In this document: one piece after another, positions 15,060 to 47,796 of the stretch
How positions within the stretch are numbered: position 1 is the stretch's first letter
Layout of the letters: every line of letters starts with the position of its first letter
Assembly: GCA_018822805.1 (NCBI GenBank)
Contig: JAHJJU010000057.1
Span: forward strand, 1 to 55,862
Length of the DNA stretch: 55,862 bases
Reading direction: 5' to 3'
Source of the DNA: a bacterium
GTDB lineage: Bacteria; Campylobacterota; Campylobacteria; Campylobacterales; Sulfurovaceae
The notes under the pieces: generated by a model
Told to the model about the DNA's origin: nothing
Databases searched by the model: none
The model's input: the letters and a program-made list of their open reading frames with translations, nothing else
Translations under genes and position numbers: made by a program

Positions 15060-16727
15060 ATGCAAAAAATACCCATAGGAATGAGTGATTTTAAAGAGCT
15101 GATTGAAACCGATAGATACTATGTGGATAAAACAGATTTTATTGCTGAAATCATTGATAGCAGTGCAAAGGTGCTTCTCCTTCCACGCCCAAGACGATTT
15201 GGAAAAACGCTTAATCTTAGTATGTTGAACTATTTTTTTGATAAAAGCGAAAACAATAAAGAGCTATTTAAAAGGTTAAACATTGCTCAAAATACAAAGG
15301 CAATGGAGCATTGTAATGCTTATCCTATTATTTACATTACTTTTAAAGATGTAAAAGAAGAGAGTTTTGAAAAGAGTCTTACTAAAATAGGAATGCTTAT
15401 TGAAAAAGAGTTTGCACGGCATAAAAAAGCTATTTTCAGCATAGAATTAGAAGAAAAAGAGAAACAATTAATAGAGAGATTATTAATCACTTCGGCGAAT
15501 CAAGTTGATTTTGAAGTAGCTTTAAAATTACTCTCCAAATTACTCACTCTTGCCCACAACCAAAAATGTATTATCCTTATAGATGAATACGATACCCCCA
15601 TTCAAACAGCGTTTTTAAAAGGGTATTATGAAGAGATGGTGGGGTTTTTCAAAACCTTTATGGGAGCCGTTTTAAAAGACAATGATGTCCATGTTTATAA
15701 AGCCGTGCTTACAGGGATTTTACGCATCTCTAAGGAGTCTATTTTTAGTGATTTAAACAACATAGAGGTCTATACCCTACTTGATAATGAGTTTGGAGAC
15801 AAATTTGGATTTAATACAAATGAAGTCAAAAATATGTTAAAAACCTATCAATTAGAGAACAGCATTGACGAGGTTAATGAGTGGTACAATGGGTATAAAA
15901 TAGGAGACTTCACCATCTATAACCCTTGGTCACTGCTCAATTATGTCAATCGCCGTCGTTTTGATGTCTACTGGGCAAACACCTCTTCGAATGATATTAT
16001 ACGTATTTTGGTAGAAAACTCCGATGGCTTTAGAGACGATTTAAAATACCTGCTCAAAGGTGAGATGGTAGAAAAAGTGATTAATCCCAACATTACGTTT
16101 AAAGACAGAGATTTTAATTTTAATGAAGAGATGTTGTACTCTTTTCTCTTTTTTTCAGGTTATCTAAAATATACCTCAAAAGAGTGGAGACAAGGGGAGC
16201 ATATTTGTACGTTAGGGATTGTCAATGTAGAGTGTCAATACATCTTTAGAAAAATCATTGCCAACTGGGTTAGTGAAAAGTTTTCTAATCCAAGACTTAG
16301 AATCTTGCTCAAATCCTTAACCGATGGCGATTTAAAATTGTTTGAAAAAATATTTAGTGAATTTGTACGAGACACGCTTTCATTTTATGATACAGGTAAA
16401 AATGTAGAGAGTGTTTATCATGCTTTTTTATTGGGACTGTTGGTCAACTTAAGTGATTATGAGGTTATCTCCAACAAAGAAGCAGGTTACGGACGGGTGG
16501 ATATTATGGTTTTACACAAAGAAGACAAAGAGAAATTAGCCTTGGTCATAGAGCTTAAAACCATTGATGAGTTTGAAGAAGAGACCAAAGAGAAAGCCTT
16601 AATAAGTGCCGTAAAACAGATAGAAGAAAAAGCCTATGCTTCAGAGGTTCAGAAAAAAGGCTATACAAATATTTTAGCCTTTGGTGTGGTGTTTGATGGT
16701 AAGAGGGTTTGGGTGAAGGAGGGGTGA
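15060..16727 (+). CDS. AAA-ATPase-like/PD-(D/E)XK nuclease family protein, copy A
   Basis: 555-residue protein of the AAA-ATPase_like plus DUF1703 architecture common in Bacteroidota and Campylobacterota and without a proven function. The N-terminal ATPase part has a P-loop-like PRPRRFGKTLNLSML near 42-56 and Walker B IILIDEYDTP near 171-180. The C-terminal nuclease-like domain has GYGRVDIMVL and LVIELKT (about 475-500), the D...ExK pattern of PD-(D/E)XK enzymes. About nine residues in ten match copy B at 25227. The differences cluster in the first ~100 residues and in about 235-300, while long blocks are identical. Its stop codon abuts a truncated DUF1016 gene. A defence, mobile-element or DNA-repair role is possible but unproven. 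Confidence 0.85.
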   Translation: MQKIPIGMSDFKELIETDRYYVDKTDFIAEIIDSSAKVLLLPRPRRFGKTLNLSMLNYFFDKSENNKELFKRLNIAQNTKAMEHCNAYPIIYITFKDVKEESFEKSLTKIGMLIEKEFARHKKAIFSIELEEKEKQLIERLLITSANQVDFEVALKLLSKLLTLAHNQKCIILIDEYDTPIQTAFLKGYYEEMVGFFKTFMGAVLKDNDVHVYKAVLTGILRISKESIFSDLNNIEVYTLLDNEFGDKFGFNTNEVKNMLKTYQLENSIDEVNEWYNGYKIGDFTIYNPWSLLNYVNRRRFDVYWANTSSNDIIRILVENSDGFRDDLKYLLKGEMVEKVINPNITFKDRDFNFNEEMLYSFLFFSGYLKYTSKEWRQGEHICTLGIVNVECQYIFRKIIANWVSEKFSNPRLRILLKSLTDGDLKLFEKIFSEFVRDTLSFYDTGKNVESVYHAFLLGLLVNLSDYEVISNKEAGYGRVDIMVLHKEDKEKLALVIELKTIDEFEEETKEKALISAVKQIEEKAYASEVQKKGYTNILAFGVVFDGKRVWVKEG

Positions 16728-16907
16728 GGGTTTAACCACTCCTTTACCCCAATTCTCTTTGGTAGTTTTGTCTGATATATACTTACCCAAATCCCAATAG
16801 TGTTCCATTACAGTGGTATTAGCTTGTTGATAAGCTTTTCGTTTTGCTTTATGAATAAGGGTTAATACTTCATTAAAACTGGTTTGATTATTTTTTATAT
16901 TTGGCAT
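16674..16907 (-). pseudogene. Truncated DUF1016 (YhcG-type) nuclease N-terminus
   Basis: From ATG 16907 (with an AGAGAAG ribosome-binding site) the first ~58 residues match the DUF1016 N-terminal domain: FNEVLTLIHKAKRKAYQQAN, then EHYWDLGKYIS and ENWGKGVV. Homology stops at the Val-Val next to base 16734. The remaining frame is only the antisense of the ATPase copy A 3' end. The rest of the domain and the C-terminal PD-(D/E)XK part are missing, so the gene was cut where the ATPase copy joins. Confidence 0.75.
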
Positions 16908-16981
16908 CGTTTTCTTCTCTTTTTACAAGTTTAACATTTATTATTTAATTTTGTTGGAAATGTGGTATATTGTCATATTGT

Positions 16982-17581
16982 TTACTTTTCATACACTAAA
17001 AATGTACCATTAAAATCAAAACAACTACTCTTTACTATTGAACTATTTCTATCACAATAGGTCTCTAAAACCTGATCTTTTAAAGACAATAATAAGTATA
17101 CAAAAAGTACTATTAATCCAAATAGAATAATAAGTTTGGTAATCGGTATTCTTGAATAATATTTTGTTAATAACTTTTTAATTTCATTTGCATATTTAAA
17201 GTTTTTATCAGCTATATAACCATCATCTATTACCTTACTTGGAGAGGAATGTAATGAATTTGACAATCCAATTAATCTTTCAGAAACTATTTTAATATCA
17301 TTTTCATTCGGAATAATTCGTAAATAATACCACACATTATAAAACGGGATAATTGAAACTTTAGTTATCAAGTTACTACTATGTTTTCGTAAAATAGATG
17401 ATACATTCTCTATAGTTTCTTTATTATCTATCCCTGGATTTGAATATATATTTGCATAATAAACCATATCTCCCAAAATAGAAGCTATCTCTTTTTTCAA
17501 CTCTTGTATGGGTTCAATAATTGATTTTAATATAAACTGTCCAACTACAAAAATACTTACTGCTGATACAATATCTAACAT
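16982..17581 (-). CDS. Two-TM membrane protein of the helicase/GHKL operon
   Basis: 199-residue protein of unrecognised function. Membrane segments at about 4-26 and 146-168 flank a ~120-residue soluble region containing EPIQELKKEIASILGDMVYYANIYSNPG and the pattern RLIGLSNSLH. A short C-terminal tail has two Cys residues. Similar small membrane proteins with the ANIYSNPG / LIGLSNS signatures occur as hypothetical proteins in other bacteria (recalled, not searched). ATG at 17581 has AAGGAG overlapping the stop codon of the GHKL gene, so it is the last gene of the SNF2-GHKL operon. A membrane effector role is an attractive guess only. Confidence 0.7.
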   Translation of the reverse strand: MLDIVSAVSIFVVGQFILKSIIEPIQELKKEIASILGDMVYYANIYSNPGIDNKETIENVSSILRKHSSNLITKVSIIPFYNVWYYLRIIPNENDIKIVSERLIGLSNSLHSSPSKVIDDGYIADKNFKYANEIKKLLTKYYSRIPITKLIILFGLIVLFVYLLLSLKDQVLETYCDRNSSIVKSSCFDFNGTFLVYEK

Positions 17582-17593
17582 AAAAGTTCTCCT

Positions 17594-20500
17594 TTAATTT
17601 TCATTCCAAGCTTCAATAAATGCCACCATATGAGCTTTTGTAAATTTAATAAACTGTTCTTTTTTAAATATTTCTATATCTAAAAAAAAGACTTCATCTC
17701 GTGTAAAATTATCATTTTCATCTAACATATAAAAAGCATCATTTTTTACATCAATATCATCTTTCCCAACCCAATCATATAATTCAAAAATTTTATCTGC
17801 ATTTTCAATTTCTAATTTAGTACTTTTCTCATGTTCTTTAATTTTATCAACAAATAAGTTTTTTTGTAAATTTCTCTTAAAGATTTCATAATGCTTAAAG
17901 CATAAACAAAGAGTATTTCCTTTCCTGTTCACATCTCTAGACTTTCCAATATTTAATGACTTCATTGTATATGTATTTTGCCCCTTATCAGCAAAGGTAT
18001 CTCCACAAATTTGACAATGCCCCTCATATTCTTTATATAAAAAGTCTTGAACTTTTTCTACTTCTTTTAGGTCTTGGGTTCTATAGTTTGTCTGAGAAGT
18101 CGTAAATTTATTTTGATTATTTTTATTTTCTTCATGTTCATCTTTTTTATATCGTTCATCATCTAAAATTTGTGTTTCATTATTTCTAGCTTGTATAAAT
18201 TCTTCTGATTCACCATCTCCTTGGTTTAATACTAAAGATTCTTTAAGTTTTTGAGCATTTAGAAGTTTCAGTACCCCCTCTTCTCCTATATCTTTGAGTT
18301 CCTCTATTAAGTTCAATGGTAAACCAGTTAAATCTTCTACAATTTGTTTTTTCTTTTTATACTCCTCTTCATTCTCTTTAATATTTTTACCTAATTCAAT
18401 AGCTTGAAGCCAAATATTATCTTGTTCACATTTAAATTCGTTATGTAACATATCCCTAGATATATCTTGTGGTTTATAAAATTTACCATTTTTATCAGGA
18501 ACCCATACTTTACTTTGTAGTTGATGTAATATTGTTGAGTGATCTCTTAAATCATCTTCAGCTTTATTTGTTTTGAATTGATAATAAGCATTCTGCTTTT
18601 CTTTATTTAATTTTTTTATTGTATTCCAAATTAGTAATGAAATATTTAGATTATTAATTTCAAATAATCTATCATACTTAAATTTATAATTAGTAAATTT
18701 ACTATTTTTATTTTTATTCTTTTTTTTTATTTTAGTTATCCAAATATCATATTTATGAAAAAATGGTGTTAATTTATTTTCCTCTTTAATTGATAATTGA
18801 GTAATTACACCTAATTTCTTTAAAAACTCTATAAAAATCTTTTTCTTCTCTTTTTCTAAACTATGATAAATTTCATTTAATGAAAATAACGACTTATCAT
18901 CTTTTCCTATAGCATTCATACCTGTTTTTTCAAATGGACTGTCAATATATATTTCTTCAGGTTTTTTATATCCATCAAATTCACTCACTCTAATAAATTT
19001 ATATTCTCGAAAAAAATCAATATCAGTTTTATGTCTTTCGTAAAACCTAATAAATTTTTGAATATGCTCTAAATGTCTATCTGTTTCAACAAAGTTATTT
19101 TGATAGTTCTCTTTTAAAATAATTTCAATTTTTTCTTTCTCTCCTATCTCTTTAACACCTAGTTTTTCTAAAAAACTTTTAGCCTCTGGATTACGAAAAT
19201 ATACAGAATCTTTGACAATAAGTAGCTCTTTAATATCACTTCGTTGGGAAAAATAGCAATCTTCTTTACTAGTATTTAATGTCTCATTAGACAATAAAAT
19301 AAACTTCTTAAATTGAGGTTTGTCCTCAAAATAAGTAGATTTCTCTTGATTTAAAAATACATATAAAGCTTTAAACCACTTATCTGATTCTCCTTGAATC
19401 ATATTAACAATAGATTCATCCTTCTGATTAGCTAACTTTTCTAAAATATTAAATAGTTTTGTATCATCAAACTTCTCTATCTCAAGCATCTCTATAAAAC
19501 TCTTTTGTCTAGTTTTATATTTCAACTTTTCACTATCAAGATAATATATTTTCTCAAAGTGACGATTATAAAAATGGAACATAAAATCTTTTAATATATT
19601 TTTTGACAATACACTTCTTGCCTCTTTTGTATTTATAAGAAAACACTCTGAGGCAGACCTATGTATTCCTCTATCAGTCATTAAAAACTTCTCTTTATTA
19701 AAATATTCCACTATACTTTTTTGAATAGGCAAATAAAATTCACTTAAGTTGTCTCCATCATGAGGCATAGAAGCTAAAAATCTATAATCTAATAGTTGAT
19801 TACGTTTGAGATATTTTAAGACATCTAATAATAACTTAGAAATTAGATTTCGAAGCTCATTATTCTCTTCTAAGTCTTTGATACTATCTCGTGCAACAGT
19901 CGAAGAAAAAGGTGCATGAATATGAAACTTTAAATTACTTTTTTCTTTTTCAGCAGGAAAAAAGATAGAAACCTGACCATCATCTATAGACTTTACATAC
20001 TCCTCTTTAGTACTCTTATCAATAACAATCTCAAAGGCTACAGAAACATATAATTTCTCTTTCTTAGGTAAGGGTTTTTTAAACCTTAGCCATTTCCTAT
20101 CAGTACGATTCTTTGAATTAGTAATATTTACAATAATATCACCTGTTTCTTTTCTCTCAATATGATGAATTTTATCACCAAAGGAATATGAAATTTTCTT
20201 AATATTCGTTAAAAATAATAATGTATTATCTTTTATGTCATTAAGACCTTTATAAATTTCCCTATATGCTTCTTCTTTTGACTTGTTTGGATTATTAAAA
20301 GGAAAAACCATTAGAGTTTCTGAACTATCAGGAATAATAGATTCAATAACTGTTGGTACGACTAAATCAGATATTTCAAAACAGTATTCACCTGAATAAA
20401 TTTGAGGTGTTGAGGTATAAGCAAAAACTGCTTTAAAGCCAACTCCAAACTTTCCTATTTTATTAATGTCATTTACACTAGTACCATTTGCAATACTAGT

Positions 20501-20755
20501 AATACCATCAATATGTTCCTTATTAAACTTCTCTCCATTATGTGTAAATCTTAATTCATCTTCAACTAGTTTAAATTTAACTTCTGTGCCTTCCTTGTCT
20601 TCGGCATTTTGTAAAAGTTCATAAATAAAATGTGCATTATCAGGATATAAATCTGTTAAAAGTTTTTTAATACCTTCATCAAAAGAATTTTCTTTACTTA
20701 CTCTTACCCAATCTTCTCGCTTTTTAGTTAACTTACTAAAATCAACCTTATTCAT
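17594..20755 (-). CDS. Sacsin-like GHKL ATPase with C-terminal HNH-like zinc module
   Basis: Large cytoplasmic protein of about 1053 residues. The N-terminus is a GHKL (Hsp90/MutL/sacsin-type) ATPase: N-box ELLQNAEDKEG near 46-56, a degenerate D-x-G box (THNGEKF near 71-77) and IGKFGVGFKAVF near 100-111. The middle ~700 residues are Lys/Glu-rich and unrecognised. Near 914-954 CQIC and LCLCFKH form a C-x2-C ... C-x-C-x2-H zinc knuckle like those at the ends of bacterial sacsin-like/HNH proteins. The start is placed at 20755 (or 20758) because GGAGGGG lies just upstream and the ATG overlaps the SNF2 stop. The longer frame to 20800 lies inside the helicase. Base composition is markedly AT-rich, suggesting transfer. 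Confidence 0.8.
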   Translation of the reverse strand: MNKVDFSKLTKKREDWVRVSKENSFDEGIKKLLTDLYPDNAHFIYELLQNAEDKEGTEVKFKLVEDELRFTHNGEKFNKEHIDGITSIANGTSVNDINKIGKFGVGFKAVFAYTSTPQIYSGEYCFEISDLVVPTVIESIIPDSSETLMVFPFNNPNKSKEEAYREIYKGLNDIKDNTLLFLTNIKKISYSFGDKIHHIERKETGDIIVNITNSKNRTDRKWLRFKKPLPKKEKLYVSVAFEIVIDKSTKEEYVKSIDDGQVSIFFPAEKEKSNLKFHIHAPFSSTVARDSIKDLEENNELRNLISKLLLDVLKYLKRNQLLDYRFLASMPHDGDNLSEFYLPIQKSIVEYFNKEKFLMTDRGIHRSASECFLINTKEARSVLSKNILKDFMFHFYNRHFEKIYYLDSEKLKYKTRQKSFIEMLEIEKFDDTKLFNILEKLANQKDESIVNMIQGESDKWFKALYVFLNQEKSTYFEDKPQFKKFILLSNETLNTSKEDCYFSQRSDIKELLIVKDSVYFRNPEAKSFLEKLGVKEIGEKEKIEIILKENYQNNFVETDRHLEHIQKFIRFYERHKTDIDFFREYKFIRVSEFDGYKKPEEIYIDSPFEKTGMNAIGKDDKSLFSLNEIYHSLEKEKKKIFIEFLKKLGVITQLSIKEENKLTPFFHKYDIWITKIKKKNKNKNSKFTNYKFKYDRLFEINNLNISLLIWNTIKKLNKEKQNAYYQFKTNKAEDDLRDHSTILHQLQSKVWVPDKNGKFYKPQDISRDMLHNEFKCEQDNIWLQAIELGKNIKENEEEYKKKKQIVEDLTGLPLNLIEELKDIGEEGVLKLLNAQKLKESLVLNQGDGESEEFIQARNNETQILDDERYKKDEHEENKNNQNKFTTSQTNYRTQDLKEVEKVQDFLYKEYEGHCQICGDTFADKGQNTYTMKSLNIGKSRDVNRKGNTLCLCFKHYEIFKRNLQKNLFVDKIKEHEKSTKLEIENADKIFELYDWVGKDDIDVKNDAFYMLDENDNFTRDEVFFLDIEIFKKEQFIKFTKAHMVAFIEAWNEN

Positions 20756-23654
20756 CATCCCCTCCAATATAAACCAGTCCCAAAACCTCAAACCCCTCAA
20801 AAACCTCTTTCATACCCATCAACTCAGCCATCTTCTCATCTCTCTTCATTTCCAAGTTACTAACCTCCCCCACTCGCATACGCAAAATATCCTCTTGCTG
20901 TACCTTATTTTGTAATCGCTTGGTTTTAGCAATCTGTTTTTCAAAATAGCTACTTATAGAATCTATTTTTATATCTATCAGCCTATTTTGTGTTTGTATC
21001 TCTTTTTCTTTATGCTTCTGAACCGATTGAATTATTTGAGCATTGGCTTTTTGTTTAATGCTCTCTAAATTCATTTTAGGTTGCATCGTTGTACTACTAC
21101 ATACCGATATAAACTCAAAATAATCCAACTCATCTACTTTTGAAAGTAGCTCATCTAAAACCAAAACGCGTATCATGGACTTTGTTTTTAAACCCTTGAA
21201 ATCTACTCGGTAAATAATGGCATAAGCATTTTTATAAGTAGCATGAGCCAATGTGCCATAAAGTGTTTTATGTTTTTTATCTTTGGTTATTATAGAAATA
21301 ATCGGATGATTTAAATACAAGTAGAGCGTTTCTAATTTATCATTATTGTTAGTGATAAAACTTACTTTTAATTCGTTTTGTCTCTGCAATTTTTGTAAAA
21401 CAGTTCGTTCTTTTTTATAGTTTAAAGCATCTTTGCGTTTATCACTCACACTAGTTTTTAAATGATTAAAAAGCTGTTTTAAATGTTCACTAGAAAGCTT
21501 AACCGACCCATCTTTCAACCCCAAAAACTTAATGCCTTGCTCATTCAAAAAGTCAATAAACACCTTTTTACTCTGCTCTTGAAGAAGGGTTACTTTCTTG
21601 CTATTTAAAAAGCTCTCTTCTTTGGCTTTATGGTTTAGGTCATTGTTAATTAGTTGTTCTATATGGCTATTTTGCTCTTTTATCTCAGATTTTTGACGTT
21701 GAAGTGCCAACTCTTCTAGGTCTACTTTTTTGGCTATTTCTTCATCTGAAAGGGTCAAAAGTTCTGATATATTTAACTGCTTATCAAAATCTCCTAAAAT
21801 CGGCTCTAATTCACCTATAGAGTTTTCAAAAATACCAAGTTTAGTATAGAGTCGGTTATAGATTCTGTCTTCTATAGAACCTGTAATACAAAGGTTAAAA
21901 ATATGCAACTTATCAAACCTCTGTCCGATACGGTCTATTCTACCTATCCGTTGCTCTACACGCATAGGATTCCATGGGAGGTCGTAGTTGATGACCACAT
22001 TACAAAACTGCATATCCAATCCCTCACTACCTACCTCTGAAGAGAGCAAAATATCAAACTCTCCTCTTTTAAACGCTTTGATTTTGGCAAATCGTTCTTC
22101 TATGCTAAAATCTCCGTGAATCTTACCCACACTATAACCCAAACTTTGTAATTTTGTCTCTAAATAATTCAATGTTTTTTTGAAAAAAGAGAAGACAATC
22201 ATCTGTTGTATCTTTTGAGCATGTAACTCTTTAATCACCTTTTCAAACGCTAAAAACTTAGAATCCTCTTTACCTATCTTTATACCTTTACTTATAATGT
22301 CATCCAAAAATCGCATTGCCTCTTTTTCAATGGCTAAATCTTGATGATACTCCTCTAAGTCATCTAGGTCTTTAATAAAAAGTTTACCACTCTTTTTAAT
22401 TCCTTTAAAACTCTCTAACGAAGCCATCATCGACGAACTTGCCATGCGTTCAGGCATAATGGTTATAAAACCTTGTGGAGTAGTTGGATTTAAAAACTTA
22501 ACAAACTCTATAACAGCATCATAATAAGCTTGTTCTGTTTGAGTTAGTGCAATACTCATAGAAATGGCATTTCTAGGAAGTGAACGCCCTACATCTTTTT
22601 TCTTGGTACGGTTAATTATAAAACTTAGATGGTCGGCTAAAGTCAACCTATCTATCAGTTCAACTCTTTGACTACTTAGGAGAGTTTGCAGAGTTGCTAT
22701 GTCATTAAAAATCTCTTGAAGCTCTATTGGAAATTCCTCATTTATATTCTCTTGTGCAAAGGCTTGTATCTCTTCTATTGGGTAACTATTTCGTATCAGA
22801 GCAATAAGTTTATGTATGGTCGCATTTGGGCGTATCATCTTTTGAAAATAGTCAAAATCTTTAAAGTAGTCATTATCTAAAAGAGAAAGAATATTAAAAA
22901 GGTCTTCCAAAGAGTTCTGTACAGGTGTAGCTGTCAAAAATAAAATATGTTCAGAACGAGAAGTAATCATCTGCCCACTTTTAAAAGTAGAGGTCTCATA
23001 ATTACGCATGGTATGAGCCTCATCCATAATCAAAAAGTCCACTTCAAAAAAGCTATTTTCCATTTTTTTCATCACGCGTTCATCTCTTAGCGTATGATAA
23101 GAGATAATAACTTTTTCATTGAAAAGTCGTGAACTACTGTGTGTATCAAACTCATCTATCAAGTTCATAAATTGACTGCTTTTATAGATTTCAAAATGTT
23201 CATCAAAGCGTATGGCTAACTCTTCTTTCCACTTAAAGGTTAACGATGAAGGAACAACAATAAGTGAAATCTTTAACTCTTCTCTTTTATCTATCTCTTT
23301 AAATATCATCCCAGCTTCAATGGTCTTACCCAAGCCCACTTCATCAGCTATCAACACACGAGAATTCTCAGAATTTAAAAACTTAATAAGTGGTTTATAC
23401 TGGTGAGGTTCAGGAGTGAGCCGATTGGTATTATAAGAGTAAAGAATATCACTCAAAGGATTTTTCATGCAGTTTATAAAAACATTCTCTTTTAGCTCAT
23501 CAAGTGAAGAGAGCTTTAGCCCTTCCCCTTCAAAAGCTAGGTCATCTATCGAGACGGTTTTATAATCGTTGTCTAAGAGTATTTCACAATAGCCGTCAGT
23601 TTGACTTATGATAATGGTGTTTTGATTGGTTGGTTTGTAAATGGCTTTTTTCAA
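20748..23654 (-). CDS. SNF2/RapA-like helicase
   Basis: 968-residue superfamily 2 DNA translocase of the SNF2/RapA group. Motif I GLGKT at 107-111, motif II DEAH at 211-214, motif III TATP at 241-244, and helicase C-terminal motifs SSEVGSEGLDMQF with QRIGRIDRIGQ at 568-578. Long coiled C-terminal region of about 620-940. Such enzymes move along dsDNA and remodel bound protein; standalone forms are found in several phage-defence systems. Start is TTG at 23654 (KKAIYKPTNQ), with GGGA seven bases upstream. It leads a three-gene operon with the GHKL ATPase (overlapping stop/start) and the two-TM protein. Promoter with an inverted repeat sits immediately upstream. Confidence 0.9.
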   Translation of the reverse strand: MKKAIYKPTNQNTIIISQTDGYCEILLDNDYKTVSIDDLAFEGEGLKLSSLDELKENVFINCMKNPLSDILYSYNTNRLTPEPHQYKPLIKFLNSENSRVLIADEVGLGKTIEAGMIFKEIDKREELKISLIVVPSSLTFKWKEELAIRFDEHFEIYKSSQFMNLIDEFDTHSSSRLFNEKVIISYHTLRDERVMKKMENSFFEVDFLIMDEAHTMRNYETSTFKSGQMITSRSEHILFLTATPVQNSLEDLFNILSLLDNDYFKDFDYFQKMIRPNATIHKLIALIRNSYPIEEIQAFAQENINEEFPIELQEIFNDIATLQTLLSSQRVELIDRLTLADHLSFIINRTKKKDVGRSLPRNAISMSIALTQTEQAYYDAVIEFVKFLNPTTPQGFITIMPERMASSSMMASLESFKGIKKSGKLFIKDLDDLEEYHQDLAIEKEAMRFLDDIISKGIKIGKEDSKFLAFEKVIKELHAQKIQQMIVFSFFKKTLNYLETKLQSLGYSVGKIHGDFSIEERFAKIKAFKRGEFDILLSSEVGSEGLDMQFCNVVINYDLPWNPMRVEQRIGRIDRIGQRFDKLHIFNLCITGSIEDRIYNRLYTKLGIFENSIGELEPILGDFDKQLNISELLTLSDEEIAKKVDLEELALQRQKSEIKEQNSHIEQLINNDLNHKAKEESFLNSKKVTLLQEQSKKVFIDFLNEQGIKFLGLKDGSVKLSSEHLKQLFNHLKTSVSDKRKDALNYKKERTVLQKLQRQNELKVSFITNNNDKLETLYLYLNHPIISIITKDKKHKTLYGTLAHATYKNAYAIIYRVDFKGLKTKSMIRVLVLDELLSKVDELDYFEFISVCSSTTMQPKMNLESIKQKANAQIIQSVQKHKEKEIQTQNRLIDIKIDSISSYFEKQIAKTKRLQNKVQQEDILRMRVGEVSNLEMKRDEKMAELMGMKEVFEGFEVLGLVYIGGDDE

Positions 23655-23666
23655 GTGAGTTCCCTA

Positions 23667-23697
23667 TTTTCAGTTGATAGACTATTATAACTGAAAA
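23667..23697 (-). promoter_or_regulatory. Promoter and candidate operator of the SNF2 operon
   Basis: On the minus strand a TATAAT (23689-23684) lies between the arms of a 9-bp inverted repeat, TTTTCAGTT at 23667-23675 and AACTGAAAA at 23689-23697. A repressor bound to the repeat would cover the -10. The small HTH protein encoded at 24018 is a possible binder. Confidence 0.45.
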
Positions 23698-23860
23698 CAA
23701 AAAAATATATTATTATTTAAGTATCATATACCTCACTTCACGTATATCAAGCTATAATTTGCCATTTCAAATTTTAACACAAAATAATAATATATCAAAT
23801 TGTCATATTTCCGTAGTTAATTCAATTCAAAATCATGTTATTTTCTTTATGCCGATATTT

Positions 23861-23880
23861 GGTGCGTTGGGAAACGCACC
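23861..23880. repeat. GGTGCGTT hairpin element
   Basis: Perfect 8-bp stem GGTGCGTT / AACGCACC with loop GGGA, followed by CTAC. It has the same outline (GGTGC ... GCACCCTAC) as the palindromes after the malic enzyme gene. Confidence 0.5.
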
Positions 23881-23898
23881 CTACTTCTATGTAAACCC

Positions 23899-23929
23899 CA
23901 AAAACCACCCGACCCAAAAAACACCCCAC
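23899..23929. repeat. C-rich degenerate repeat, copy 2
   Basis: CAAAAACCACCCGACCC and following bases, similar to 14972-14999; followed by TACTTAAAATGTT, as copy 1 is followed by a TTTAAGTT stretch. Confidence 0.3.
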
Positions 23930-23966
23930 ATACTTAAAATGTTACTTTGTAAAAAGAGGATACTTA

Positions 23967-24003
23967 AAAACTCTCTTAAGAAAAGGGGAGTTTTTGCTAT
24001 AAT
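23967..24003 (+). promoter_or_regulatory. Promoter of the small HTH gene with inverted repeat
   Basis: Extended -10 TGCTATAAT (TATAAT at 23998-24003) directly after a 7-bp inverted repeat, AAAACTC at 23967-23973 and GAGTTTT at 23988-23994. It could be an autoregulatory site for the HTH protein. Confidence 0.45.
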
Positions 24004-24017
24004 CTTTTCAAAAAGGA

Positions 24018-24272
24018 GTGGTGATTTTGGAAGAAAAAGAGATGCATTTGGTTAAAAAAGTTTCTAAAGAGTTGGGGTTGACTTATAAAGAATTGGGAGA
24101 AGCCATTGGATATAGTGAAGGTAATTTAAGACGTTCTGTATCAAAAAATCAACTTAGTGGACAACTAAAAAAAGCTATAGAACTTTATTTAGAAATTGTT
24201 AAACTAAGAGAAAAAGAAGAAAGAATAAAAAAATCAAAAGAATTAATAGTAACTTTATTAGAAGATATTTAA
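24018..24272 (+). CDS. Small helix-turn-helix protein
   Basis: Up to 84 residues; an XRE/phage repressor-like HTH is suggested by KELGLTYKELGEAIGYSEGNLRRSVSKNQLS, where LTYKELGEAIGYSEGNLRR has the helix-turn-helix spacing. It is followed by an amphipathic helical tail rich in Lys and Glu. The start is uncertain: GTG at 24018 or 24021 or TTG at 24027; AGGAG at 24013-24017 best suits the TTG. It sits between the SNF2 operon (divergent) and the winged-helix gene, where a regulator of either would be expected. No exact family assigned. Confidence 0.6.
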   Translation: MVILEEKEMHLVKKVSKELGLTYKELGEAIGYSEGNLRRSVSKNQLSGQLKKAIELYLEIVKLREKEERIKKSKELIVTLLEDI

Positions 24273-24302
24273 TATAAAAAAGAATTTATAACTACTTTTT
24301 TC

Positions 24303-24331
24303 TTGACAAAAATAAAATAATATCCTACAAT
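24303..24331 (+). promoter_or_regulatory. Consensus-like promoter of the winged-helix gene
   Basis: TTGACA at 24303-24308, a 17-base spacer, and TACAAT at 24326-24331, one of the best sigma-70-type promoters in the window. It sits 30 bases before the ATG at 24362. Confidence 0.65.
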
Positions 24332-24361
24332 GCCAAATATCAAAAAAATATAAGGCAAAAA

Positions 24362-25180
24362 ATGGAACTCGAACCCATAGAAAATCCCATTGTTATTCAT
24401 CCGCATTTGTTGCAACGGTTTTTAAAGCATGGCAAAGATTATGCAAACCTTTTAGCCTTGTATAGCTTTTATCTGTATCATGCACAACTCCAAAAAACAA
24501 ACCAACCTTTAGCCACCGATGAGTTTACAAGAAAAGGGATGAATTGGGCAATGGATAGGGTTAAAAAAACCAAAAAACTTTTAAAAGAGATGAATTTAAT
24601 AGAGGTCGTACAAAAAGAAAAATACTATTATGTGCATCTTTTTTTTATCTACACCAAGAAGAAGATTGGCGAGATTCTTGGGAACGCTACAACTAGCCAT
24701 AAAAAGAATGCAACCCCTAAAAAAGAGACCAAAGAAGCAACAACCGAGCCAAAAAATGAGCCAACTTTATTGAACAGTTGGCTTCTTTATTGTGATAAAA
24801 ACGCCATAAAATATAGTAAAAACAATCTAAAATATTGGAACAAAAAGCTTGAAAATAGAGTCACCATCGACCAACAAGAAGCCATTTATAACGCCATAAA
24901 AAAAGGGTGGAAAGATTTTTATTTGGTTGCTATTAAAGATTCAAAATACCATAAATTTTTAGGAAAAAGTCTGATGATGGAGAAAGATTGCGATACATTA
25001 ATAGATATTGCGTTTAAAGAAAACAGGTTTATCTATCGGTTCAAAAACATCAAAATCACCACCACCGAGCCACCATCAAAGCTTTTTGAACGGTACGGTT
25101 ATGAGAAAAATGAGGTAAAAACCGCCCCCATGGTCTCACGCGTTCAACGTAGGATTTTGGGATTGATTCAGAGGTTTTGA
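24362..25180 (+). CDS. Winged-helix, replication-like protein of a mobile element
   Basis: 272-residue basic protein I cannot assign to a named family. Residues ~10-85 look like a winged-helix DNA-binding domain (LLALYSFYLYHAQ ... FTRKGMNWAMDRVKKTKKLL ... MNLIEVVQKEKYYYVHL). A Lys/Thr-rich linker (110-130) follows. The C-terminal part (LLNSWLLYC ... YWNKKLENR ... IYNAIKKGWKDFYLV) recalls the C-terminal modules of phage replication proteins. That reading is tentative. It has a strong promoter and AAGG before the ATG and ends 46 bases before ATPase copy B. A decayed copy of its last ~110 bases lies at 27571-27680, showing that this gene has been duplicated locally. Confidence 0.55.
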   Translation: MELEPIENPIVIHPHLLQRFLKHGKDYANLLALYSFYLYHAQLQKTNQPLATDEFTRKGMNWAMDRVKKTKKLLKEMNLIEVVQKEKYYYVHLFFIYTKKKIGEILGNATTSHKKNATPKKETKEATTEPKNEPTLLNSWLLYCDKNAIKYSKNNLKYWNKKLENRVTIDQQEAIYNAIKKGWKDFYLVAIKDSKYHKFLGKSLMMEKDCDTLIDIAFKENRFIYRFKNIKITTTEPPSKLFERYGYEKNEVKTAPMVSRVQRRILGLIQRF

Positions 25181-25191
25181 GGTCGATTATA

Positions 25192-25226
25192 AGTATAATC
25201 AAACAGATAAAAGAGAAGGTAAAAAA
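25192..25226 (+). promoter_or_regulatory. Duplicated promoter and leader of AAA-ATPase copy B
   Basis: TATAAT at 25194-25199 and AGAAGG before the ATG; the block from 25192 matches the leader of copy A at 15025. Confidence 0.5.
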
Positions 25227-26894
25227 ATGCAAAAACTACCCATAGGAAAAAGTGATTTTAAATCTATTATAGAAGATGGTTTTTATTATGTTGATAAAAC
25301 AAATTTTATTACTGAAATCATTGATGCCAGTGCTGATGTGATTCTGCTTCCACGCCCCAGACGCTTTGGAAAAACGCTTAATCTTGGTATGTTAAAGTAT
25401 TTTTTTGATAGCGAAGAGGATAACAAAGTATTATTTCAAGGCTTAAATATCGCTCAAAACAGTGAAGCGATGCAACACTGTAATAAATATCCTATTATCT
25501 ATATTACTTTTAAAGATGTGAAAGAAGAGAGTTTTGAAAAGAGTCTGATTAAAATAGGAATGCTGATTGAAAAAGAGTTTGCTCGACATAAAAAAGCTAT
25601 TTATAGCGTTGAGTTAGAAGAAAAAGAGAGACAATTAATTGAAAGATTATTAATCACTTCGGCGAATCAAGTTGATTTTGAAGTGGCTTTAAAATTACTA
25701 TCCAAACTACTCACACTTGCCCATAACCAAAAATGCATCATCCTCATAGACGAATACGATACCCCGATTCAAACAGCATTTTTAAAAGGCTATTACGAAG
25801 AGATGGTGGGGTTTTTTAAAACCTTTATGGGAGCTGTTTTAAAAGACAACGATGTCCATGTTTATAAAGCAGTTTTAACAGGTATTTTACGCATTTCAAA
25901 AGAGTCTATTTTTAGTGATTTGAACAATATAAAAGTTTATACCTTACTAGATAACCCTTTTTCTGACAAGTTTGGATTTACCAGTAATGAAGTCAAGGCG
26001 ATGTTAAAAAATTACAATTTAAGTGATAATTTTGAAGAGGTTAATCAGTGGTACAATGGGTATAAAATTGGTGAAACGACTATTTTTAATCCGTGGTCAT
26101 TGTTAAATTATAGTGATAGTGGTGCATTTGACATCTATTGGGCAAACACCTCTTCTAACGATATTATACGTATCTTGGTAGAAAACTCCGATGGTTTTAG
26201 AGACGATTTAAAATACCTGCTCAAAGGGGAAACGGTGCAAAAAGTTATTAACCCCAATATTACCTTTAAAGATAAAGATTTTAATTTTAATGAAGAGATG
26301 CTTTACTCATTTCTCTTTTTTTCAGGATATCTCAAATACACTTCTAAAACATGGAAACAAGGGGAGCATATTTGTACCTTAGCCATTGTCAATGTGGAGT
26401 GTCAATATATCTTTAGAAAAATCATTGCCAATTGGGTTAGCGAAAAGTTTTCAAATCCAAGACTCAGAATTCTACTCAAATCATTAACCGATGGCGATTT
26501 AAAACTGTTTGAAAAAATATTTAGTGAGTTTGTACGCGACACGCTTTCATTTTACGATACAGGTAAAAATGTAGAAAGTGTGTATCATGCTTTTTTATTG
26601 GGATTATTGGTCAATTTGAGCGATTATGAAATAATATCGAACAAAGAAGCAGGTTACGGACGGGTCGATATTATCGTATTGCACAAAGAAGACAAAGAAA
26701 AATTAGCCCTCGTCATAGAGCTTAAAACCATAGACGAGTTTGAAGAAGAGACCAAAGAAAAAGCCCTAATCAGTGCTGTAAAACAGATAGAAGAGAAAGC
26801 TTATGTTTCAGAGGTTCAGAAAAAAGGCTATAAAAATATCTTAGCCTTTGGTGTGGTCTTTGATGGTAAGAGGGTTTGGGTGATGGAGGGATGA
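25227..26894 (+). CDS. AAA-ATPase-like/PD-(D/E)XK nuclease family protein, copy B
   Basis: Paralogue of the protein at 15060: same length (555), same P-loop-like PRPRRFGKT, Walker B IILIDEYDTP and C-terminal GYGRVDI / LVIELKT nuclease-like motif. Residues ~104-230 and ~385-555 are almost unchanged between the copies. Residues 1-100 and 235-300 carry most substitutions (for example LENSIDEVNEWY against LSDNFEEVNQWY). That mosaic suggests gene conversion between the copies, or diversifying pressure on two blocks. It follows the winged-helix gene by 46 bases and is followed by the BrnA/BrnT pair on the other strand. The function is as uncertain as for copy A. Confidence 0.85.
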   Translation: MQKLPIGKSDFKSIIEDGFYYVDKTNFITEIIDASADVILLPRPRRFGKTLNLGMLKYFFDSEEDNKVLFQGLNIAQNSEAMQHCNKYPIIYITFKDVKEESFEKSLIKIGMLIEKEFARHKKAIYSVELEEKERQLIERLLITSANQVDFEVALKLLSKLLTLAHNQKCIILIDEYDTPIQTAFLKGYYEEMVGFFKTFMGAVLKDNDVHVYKAVLTGILRISKESIFSDLNNIKVYTLLDNPFSDKFGFTSNEVKAMLKNYNLSDNFEEVNQWYNGYKIGETTIFNPWSLLNYSDSGAFDIYWANTSSNDIIRILVENSDGFRDDLKYLLKGETVQKVINPNITFKDKDFNFNEEMLYSFLFFSGYLKYTSKTWKQGEHICTLAIVNVECQYIFRKIIANWVSEKFSNPRLRILLKSLTDGDLKLFEKIFSEFVRDTLSFYDTGKNVESVYHAFLLGLLVNLSDYEIISNKEAGYGRVDIIVLHKEDKEKLALVIELKTIDEFEEETKEKALISAVKQIEEKAYVSEVQKKGYKNILAFGVVFDGKRVWVMEG

Positions 26895-46854: not shown

Positions 46855-47733
46855 TTATATAGGAAAATTAACTGCTTGAGAAGCAGTATATTTACCGGCA
46901 GACAATTCACTTAAAAACTCTTCAAGTGAATAAAGTTGTCGTGCATCTGAAGTCATAATATGAATCAAAATATCGCCTAAATCAATAACAACCCAATCTT
47001 CGCTCTCATCGACATGAAGGAACTCCTCACCCAAGGGTTTAAGCTCCTCTTTTAACTGTACTGCCAAAGATGTTGAGTGTTTTCCACCCAATGAGTTTGC
47101 AATGACAACCCTTTTTGCCAAGTAATCAATATCTTCTAAATTAAATACTTCAATCTCTTCTGCTTTTTTACTGTCTAAAAAAGTAACAATTCTTTCTATT
47201 CTTTCATCCATGTTCATATGGTTCTTATCCTTCGTAATGTTATTCCGTATCTCTGTTGAGCTTATATCTACATCTGTCTCGATAATTTTAAATGCTCTTA
47301 ATTGTGAGGTATCTACGGTGTATCCTCTTCTTGTCGCAATTACCCATGTAATGTGACTGTTTAACCATGCGAAATTATACCATTTATTAATACTTTTTAA
47401 ATTATCAGCACCAATTATCACATAATCGACATGAAACTTTTTTTGAAAATGGGTAACTGTTTTAAACGTTGGGGTTGCTTCCCCCTGATCAATCTCAAAA
47501 CTTTCTACGCTTACCTTATTGAAACTTTTAAACATCTCTTTGGTAAGTCTTAAGCGTTCTTCTGCTGTGAAATGAGAATCTATTTTAAAAGGATTTAAAA
47601 ATGTTGGAACGACAAGAATCATGTTAATATCTAATACTTTTAATGCCTCTTCAACTATCAATTTATGACCAATGTGTGGAGGGTCGAAACTACCACCGAA
47701 AAGTGCGATGCTCTCTTGCCTATGTTTAACCAA
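46855..47733 (-). CDS. nadD: Fused nicotinate-nucleotide adenylyltransferase and ribosomal silencing factor (NadD-RsfS)
   Basis: One frame carries NadD (NaMN + ATP to NaAD, for NAD synthesis) and RsfS, which binds ribosomal protein L14 and keeps subunits apart. The NadD part has FGGSFDPPHIGH and ISSTEIR. The RsfS part starts at MNMDERIERIVTFLDSKKAE and has WVVIDLGDILIHIM and a final YSLEEFL. NadD and RsfS are normally separate, for example adjacent in C. jejuni. NadD's last helix is absent or replaced by the first helix of RsfS. An internal ATG at 47217 has AAGGAT 10 bases before it, so free RsfS could also be made. I place the start at TTG 47733 (GAGG 7 bases upstream); the frame is open to ATG 47775. 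Divergent from gapA. Confidence 0.85.
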   Translation of the reverse strand: MVKHRQESIALFGGSFDPPHIGHKLIVEEALKVLDINMILVVPTFLNPFKIDSHFTAEERLRLTKEMFKSFNKVSVESFEIDQGEATPTFKTVTHFQKKFHVDYVIIGADNLKSINKWYNFAWLNSHITWVIATRRGYTVDTSQLRAFKIIETDVDISSTEIRNNITKDKNHMNMDERIERIVTFLDSKKAEEIEVFNLEDIDYLAKRVVIANSLGGKHSTSLAVQLKEELKPLGEEFLHVDESEDWVVIDLGDILIHIMTSDARQLYSLEEFLSELSAGKYTASQAVNFPI

Positions 47734-47796
47734 ATAATAACCTCGACTAATGTAGAATATATTGAATTTTATCATATTAAACTAAGGGGTATATAA

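What the first reader, a model, noticed from the sequence alone, without database searches (positions are those of the whole stretch)
46855..47733. In-frame NadD-RsfS fusion with a possible internal start
Two universally separate proteins (NAD synthesis, ribosome silencing) are joined with no stop. RsfS begins where the last NadD helix would be. An ATG at 47217 preceded by AAGGAT could also yield free RsfS. A fusion could tie ribosome hibernation to NAD supply.
Basis: partly seen in the sequence, partly recalled or inferred. Interest (0 to 1): 0.5.

Follow-up and report, generated by a model that had tools for sequence, protein, structure and literature searches.

The report
NadD-RsfS fused gene, internal start
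In this Sulfurovum-like bacterium two housekeeping genes, one for making NAD and one for silencing idle ribosomes, run together as one reading frame; the same joining has come and gone many times in its relatives, and the second protein's own start signal is kept, so it is probably still also made on its own.

Summary
The fusion is real: one minus-strand frame (47733..46855) holds a NadD catalytic domain and a complete RsfS, each the genome's only copy. It is neither unique nor new. A NadD-YbeB (RsfS) fusion from Wolinella succinogenes is in print (PMC3223725). I verified the fusion in 81 of 394 Campylobacterota genomes with RsfS; on a gene tree the fused state changes at least 13-24 times. 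In one sister genome a single base (CCATAG against CCATAT) separates fused from separate. The short NadD tail occurs in unfused sisters too, so it preceded the fusion. The internal start is the best-supported part: 90 of 91 fused genes keep a start-like codon behind a Shine-Dalgarno match of 4 or more bases (windows elsewhere in the same genes: 9.8%), with synonymous codons biased to AGG and GGA there. Best reading: rsfS was translated from a ribosome-binding site inside the nadD tail; when the frames coincide and no stop lies between, a NadD-RsfS long form appears beside free RsfS. The stop's presence fits chance in this genus. A link between NAD supply and ribosome silencing is not supported, only not excluded. 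Nothing here shows proteins.

The parts
46855..47733 (-). nadD-rsfS fused ORF, 292 aa from TTG 47733 (306 aa if the ATG at 47775 is used)
   Evidence: TTG preceded by GAGG
47218..47733 (-). NadD (nicotinate-nucleotide adenylyltransferase) domain with GGSFDPPHIGH and ISSTEIR; last C-terminal helix absent
   Evidence: TIGR00482 matched 1-175 of 194; model's NadD match ends at residue ~171, Z about 20 to solved NadD
46855..47217 (-). RsfS (YbeB/iojap, ribosome silencing factor) domain; also a complete ORF of its own from ATG 47217
   Evidence: PF02410, TIGR00090 over cut-offs; Z 16.9 to ribosome-bound RsfS 9ss4
47228..47232 (-). AAGGA, internal Shine-Dalgarno of rsfS inside the nadD tail
   Evidence: kept across fused relatives
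47215..47217 (-). internal ATG start of rsfS (second in-frame ATG at 47209-47211)

Best explanation
This is a tandem nadD-rsfS pair whose intervening stop is missing, in a lineage where the ribosome-binding site and start codon of rsfS lie inside or against the nadD tail. Ribosomes that start at nadD run on and make a NadD-RsfS long form; other ribosomes bind the internal AAGGA and start at ATG 47217, making free RsfS. No free NadD is expected unless the long form is cut. The two domains work separately, joined by a short loop: NadD adenylates NaMN, RsfS binds uL14 on the large subunit (functions from the families). Fusion arises whenever the drifting overlap brings the two frames into register with no stop between; it is tolerated rather than required. 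Shown here: the fusion, its distribution, repeated change of state, and conservation of the internal initiation signal. Inferred: that both proteins are made, that both domains stay active in the long form, and that fusion is neutral.
For: Both domains over curated cut-offs, single copies. Of 91 fused loci, 90 have a start-like codon with SD match of 4+ nt and 82 of 5+ nt near the RsfS start; 43 dereplicated: 42 and 37; matched windows elsewhere in the same ORFs: 9.8% and 5.0%. With the start chosen without regard to SD, Arg codons in the SD window are AGG in 19 of 23 (dereplicated) against 48 of 439 elsewhere, Gly codons GGA in 12 of 12 against 121 of 463; upstream of 166 other in-frame ATGs AGG is 3 of 23, GGA 1 of 12. 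Fused state changes at least 24 times on the tree, 13 forced by starred branches. L050 ..CCATAGATG (unfused) against L047, L048, L051 ..CCATATATG (fused). Open frames among 16 in-register loci of the genus: 9, chance 6.5 sd 1.9. Two confident domains and a weak linker (pLDDT 91.9, linker block 64, pTM 0.62). The RsfS domain matches mitochondrial homologues whose match begins at chain residues 88 (7po4) and 195 (7aoi), so N-terminal extensions are compatible with large-subunit binding.
Against: No protein or ribosome-profiling data. L147 (G396) has no start-like codon near the RsfS start, so RsfS can exist in fused form only. In eight fused loci the only start with an SD is TTG (L073, L074, L076, L077, L078, L080, L114, L146), which may initiate poorly. 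Some deep clades are almost wholly fused (f20 genus g23: 13 of 15 fetched), which could mean selection for fusion. Shared ancestry inflates the codon statistics; dereplication reduces but does not remove this. With the start nearest the domain chosen blindly, only 38 of 42 dereplicated loci reach SD 4+ and 64 of 90 of all. The AAGGA-ATG spacing in the window is 10 nt, longer than usual.
Confidence: 0.75

Rival explanations
1. The fusion is an adaptive device: NadD senses nucleotide state or sits on the ribosome through RsfS, so NAD synthesis and ribosome silencing are coupled.
For: Fusion recurs in eight family codes of the sample and nearly fills some clades; nadD and rsfS stay adjacent in most loci.
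Against: State flips by single bases between close sisters; both states coexist in one genus (9 of 29 fused); internal start kept; stop presence fits chance. A published test of the Wolinella NadD-YbeB fusion found no pyrophosphatase or NAD cleavage activity, which does not test coupling.
Confidence: 0.1
2. Only the fusion is made; the internal ATG and SD are relics of the separate gene.
For: L147 lacks any internal start, and eight fused loci have only TTG with SD.
Against: SD-specific synonymous codons are kept across deep fused clades; 90 of 91 loci keep a start with SD.
Confidence: 0.1
3. Assembly or sequencing error hides a stop or frameshift in this genome.
For: The genome is a draft of 121 contigs.
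Against: Eight other species of the genus and single-contig genomes of other families are fused too.
Confidence: 0.02

Closest known systems
NadD-YbeB fusion protein of Wolinella succinogenes (PMC3223725, table row seen as a passage)
   Same: Same two domains in the same order, same phylum (phylum from general knowledge)
   Different: The row reports negative enzyme tests only; internal start, repeated gain and loss, and the short NadD tail were not in the passages I saw
NadD-YqeK fusion of mycoplasmas (PMC9426524, passages)
   Same: NadD fused to the product of a gene that is its neighbour elsewhere; nadD, yqeK and rsfS cluster in Firmicutes (PMC7549365, passages)
   Different: YqeK is an HD hydrolase proposed to remove wrong NadD products; the partner here is RsfS and no such metabolic logic is known
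Two-polypeptide phage endolysins from one gene (PMC9430671, abstract)
   Same: Full-length protein plus C-terminal protein from an in-frame internal start sharing one stop
   Different: There the two products can form one enzyme; here the short product is a separate housekeeping protein, and production is not shown
MALSU1 and other mitochondrial RsfS homologues with N-terminal extensions
   Same: RsfS domain towards the C-terminal side of a longer chain, bound to the large subunit
   Different: The extension is not NadD

Membership tests
NadD (TIGR00482) | score over curated cut-off | tested here: met
   135.6 bits, cut-off 112.45
NadD (TIGR00482) | nucleotidyltransferase motifs GGxFDPxHxGH and SSTxIR (motif names recalled) | tested here: met
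   GGSFDPPHIGH and ISSTEIR; invariant columns in 53 fused proteins include G13 G14 F16 D17 P18 H20 H23 and S159
NadD (TIGR00482) | C-terminal part after SSTxIR (profile positions 176-194); usual but not known to me as a catalytic requirement, so not treated as defining | tested here: inconclusive
   match ends at 175 of 194; the final helix is absent here and in unfused sisters
NadD (TIGR00482) | NaMN adenylyltransferase activity | not testable with these tools
RsfS (PF02410, TIGR00090) | score over curated cut-offs | tested here: met
   72.7 bits against 21.6; 84.2 against 56.9
RsfS (PF02410, TIGR00090) | fold of ribosome-bound RsfS | tested here: met
   9ss4_FS Z 16.9, rmsd 1.3, 101 residues aligned, predicted model
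RsfS (PF02410, TIGR00090) | binds uL14 and blocks subunit joining | not testable with these tools
Two-product gene with in-frame internal start | internal start codon with SD conserved beyond chance | tested here: met
Two-product gene with in-frame internal start | both proteins detected | not testable with these tools
   no proteomic data available here

The most novel reading that the evidence does not exclude
The long form is functional: NadD-RsfS puts an NAD-making enzyme on, or holds it off, the large ribosomal subunit, while free RsfS from the internal start acts as the plain silencer, so the ratio of the two products tunes silencing to NAD synthesis, a device that evolved repeatedly in Campylobacterota.
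Probability: 0.1. Interest if true: 0.75.

Novelty: new member of a known kind. Interest (0 to 1): 0.33.

Why it matters
It is a clean natural series of a gene pair moving between separate, fused-with-internal-start and (once) fused without an internal start. It warns annotators that about a fifth of the sampled Campylobacterota genomes carry rsfS inside a 'NadD' ORF, which can look like loss of rsfS. It also gives ready species pairs to test whether a fused RsfS works and whether NadD on the ribosome matters.

Tried and rejected
A chance or single-genome artefact was rejected. A second nadD or rsfS copy that would free the fusion from constraint: none found (two sub-threshold partial NadD matches at C98 and C31 were taken as related nucleotidyltransferases and not followed). 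Fusion causing loss of the last NadD helix: rejected, unfused sisters share it. Open frames of 240 aa or more that were not shown to be fusions: L070 (G061) and L097 (G108) are separate; L140 (G399) is cut by the contig edge. The first synonymous-codon test chose the start by its SD and was circular, so I replaced it with an SD-blind version. The C. jejuni initiation-site paper PMC11955535 was searched for nadD, rsfS, Cj1404, Cj1405 (locus names recalled): no mention in the main text. PMC3400551, PMC7125091, PMC2447192, PMC3814617: passages only, nothing on the fusion. Literature searches; only PMC3223725, found through, names the fusion. I did not find the internal start or the repeated gain and loss in those searches, which cover only open-licence PMC text. 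Domain packing could not be judged (pTM 0.62; no coordinates seen). Fusions outside Campylobacterota were not searched for.

Separate loci are a sample (61), fused loci are nearly all that were found (91); 5 fused-length loci (G185, G189, G201, G229, G345) were not fetched.

Full report
WHAT IS THERE. The ORF lies on the minus strand, 47733..46855 (292 aa from TTG; 306 aa from ATG 47775). It holds NadD and RsfS domains, both over curated cut-offs, and these are the only copies over cut-off in a 99.81% complete genome. The RsfS part begins with ATG 47217, 10 nt behind AAGGA, and has a second ATG two codons on. Named neighbours in the genome collection include Sulfurovum and Sulfurovaceae MAGs, so the host is a Sulfurovum-like member of Campylobacterota (inference from those titles).

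HOW COMMON. In the genus, 29 of 34 held genomes have an RsfS match and 9 of these 29 have it in one frame with NadD. In a sample of 397 Campylobacterota genomes, 394 have RsfS; 89 have an RsfS frame of 240 aa or more, 84 of these were fetched and 81 carry NadD in the same frame. They fall in family codes f1, f6, f8, f9, f10, f13, f16 and f20; G054 (f19), outside that sample, is a further case. On a tree of 149 concatenated NadD plus RsfS domains (90 fused, 59 separate), junction left out, fused against separate needs 24 changes, 13 of them forced by starred branches; random labels need 46.5 (quick search, SH-aLRT support only, long branches present). Gain and loss cannot be told apart by the count.

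HOW IT ARISES. The window's gene groups with L047, L048 and L051 (fused) and L050 (separate) (support 94). L050 reads ..CCA TAG ATG.., L047, L048 and L051 ..CCA TAT ATG..: one base at the stop. L050 sits inside the fused clade, so its stop may even be regained. L013 (..TCA TAA ATG.., separate) and L015 (..TTA TAC ATG.., fused) show the same kind of change among other differences. Among 60 separate same-strand loci (one more, L027, has the genes on opposite strands), the two genes are out of register in 51 (29 and 22 for the two shifts) and in register with a stop between in 9; many overlap by 4 nt or more. Of the genus's 16 in-register loci 9 are open, against 6.5 (sd 1.9) if the tail bases are shuffled; these loci are related, so this is only a rough check. 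The NadD tail is short in fused and unfused members of the genus alike, whereas most other fused families keep the final helix and join RsfS straight after it.

THE INTERNAL START. Of 91 fused loci, 90 have an ATG, GTG or TTG near the RsfS start with an SD match of at least 4 nt, 82 with at least 5; in 43 loci with junctions under 70% alike, 42 and 37. Windows of the same size elsewhere in the same frames reach this in 9.8% and 5.0% (21280 windows). Separate loci: 60 and 59 of 61. Because that test looks for the best SD, I repeated it with the start chosen without regard to SD: the nearest ATG to the domain start gives SD of 4+ in 38 and 5+ in 32 of the 42 dereplicated loci with a start (all 91 loci: 64 and 53 of 90 with a start). 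In the stretch 3-12 nt upstream, Arg is coded AGG in 19 of 23 dereplicated cases (48 of 439 elsewhere, p 6e-14) and Gly GGA in 12 of 12 (121 of 463, p 2e-7); upstream of 166 other in-frame ATGs the same counts are 3 of 23 and 1 of 12. The p-values ignore ancestry. The protein does not need these synonymous codons, the ribosome-binding site does. L147 is the one fused locus without any start-like codon there; in eight others the only start with an SD is TTG.

HOW IT MOST LIKELY WORKS. Termination-reinitiation, which needs a stop next to the start (PMC10666635, abstract), is not possible in the fused state, so free RsfS would have to be started directly at the internal site. I expect two products: NadD-RsfS and free RsfS, and no free NadD. 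AlphaFold2 gives two confident domains with a weak linker (mean pLDDT 91.9, block 161-170 at 64, pTM 0.62). The NadD part matches solved NadD up to residue 171 (Z about 20), the RsfS part matches ribosome-bound RsfS (9ss4, Z 16.9) and mitochondrial homologues that carry N-terminal extensions (7po4 from residue 88, 7aoi from residue 195), so NadD on the N-terminus need not stop ribosome binding. That both domains are active in the long form is inference.

WHAT IS KNOWN. A table row in PMC3223725 (passage) reports no pyrophosphatase or NAD cleavage activity for a 'NadD-YbeB fusion protein from Wolinella succinogenes', so the fusion itself was known by 2011. The mycoplasma NadD-YqeK fusion (PMC9426524, passages) and the nadD-yqeK-rsfS neighbourhood of Firmicutes (PMC7549365, passages) are the nearest parallels. 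In-frame internal starts that give two proteins are known from phage endolysins (PMC9430671, abstract). I found no text on the internal start of this fusion or its repeated gain and loss in the searches listed under Tried and rejected.

VERDICT. Real, widespread, already in print as a fusion; the conserved internal start and the flip-flop history are what this work adds. No support for a regulatory link between NAD and hibernation, which stays possible at low probability.

Noticed in passing
L117:29-1774 (G254): In one fused relative the NadD domain is split by about 250 residues of low-complexity Ser/Ala/Asn/Asp-rich sequence, making a 582-aa frame; Pfam sees only the first part of NadD, and RsfS.
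   Followed up: partly
window 15060-26894: Two very similar 555-aa ORFs (15060-16727 and 25227-26894, plus strand, similarity judged by eye) flank a DrmD-like SNF2 helicase (20748-23654, PADLOC 1e-112) and a TmtA-like ATPase (17594-20800, 1e-59): a possible anti-phage locus. The two 555-aa ORFs match nothing in PADLOC.
   Followed up: partly
L147 (G396): Only fused locus of 91 without a start-like codon near the RsfS start: a natural obligate fusion.
   Followed up: no
G015: A 99% complete genome of the same genus gives no RsfS match; loss or contig break not checked.
   Followed up: no
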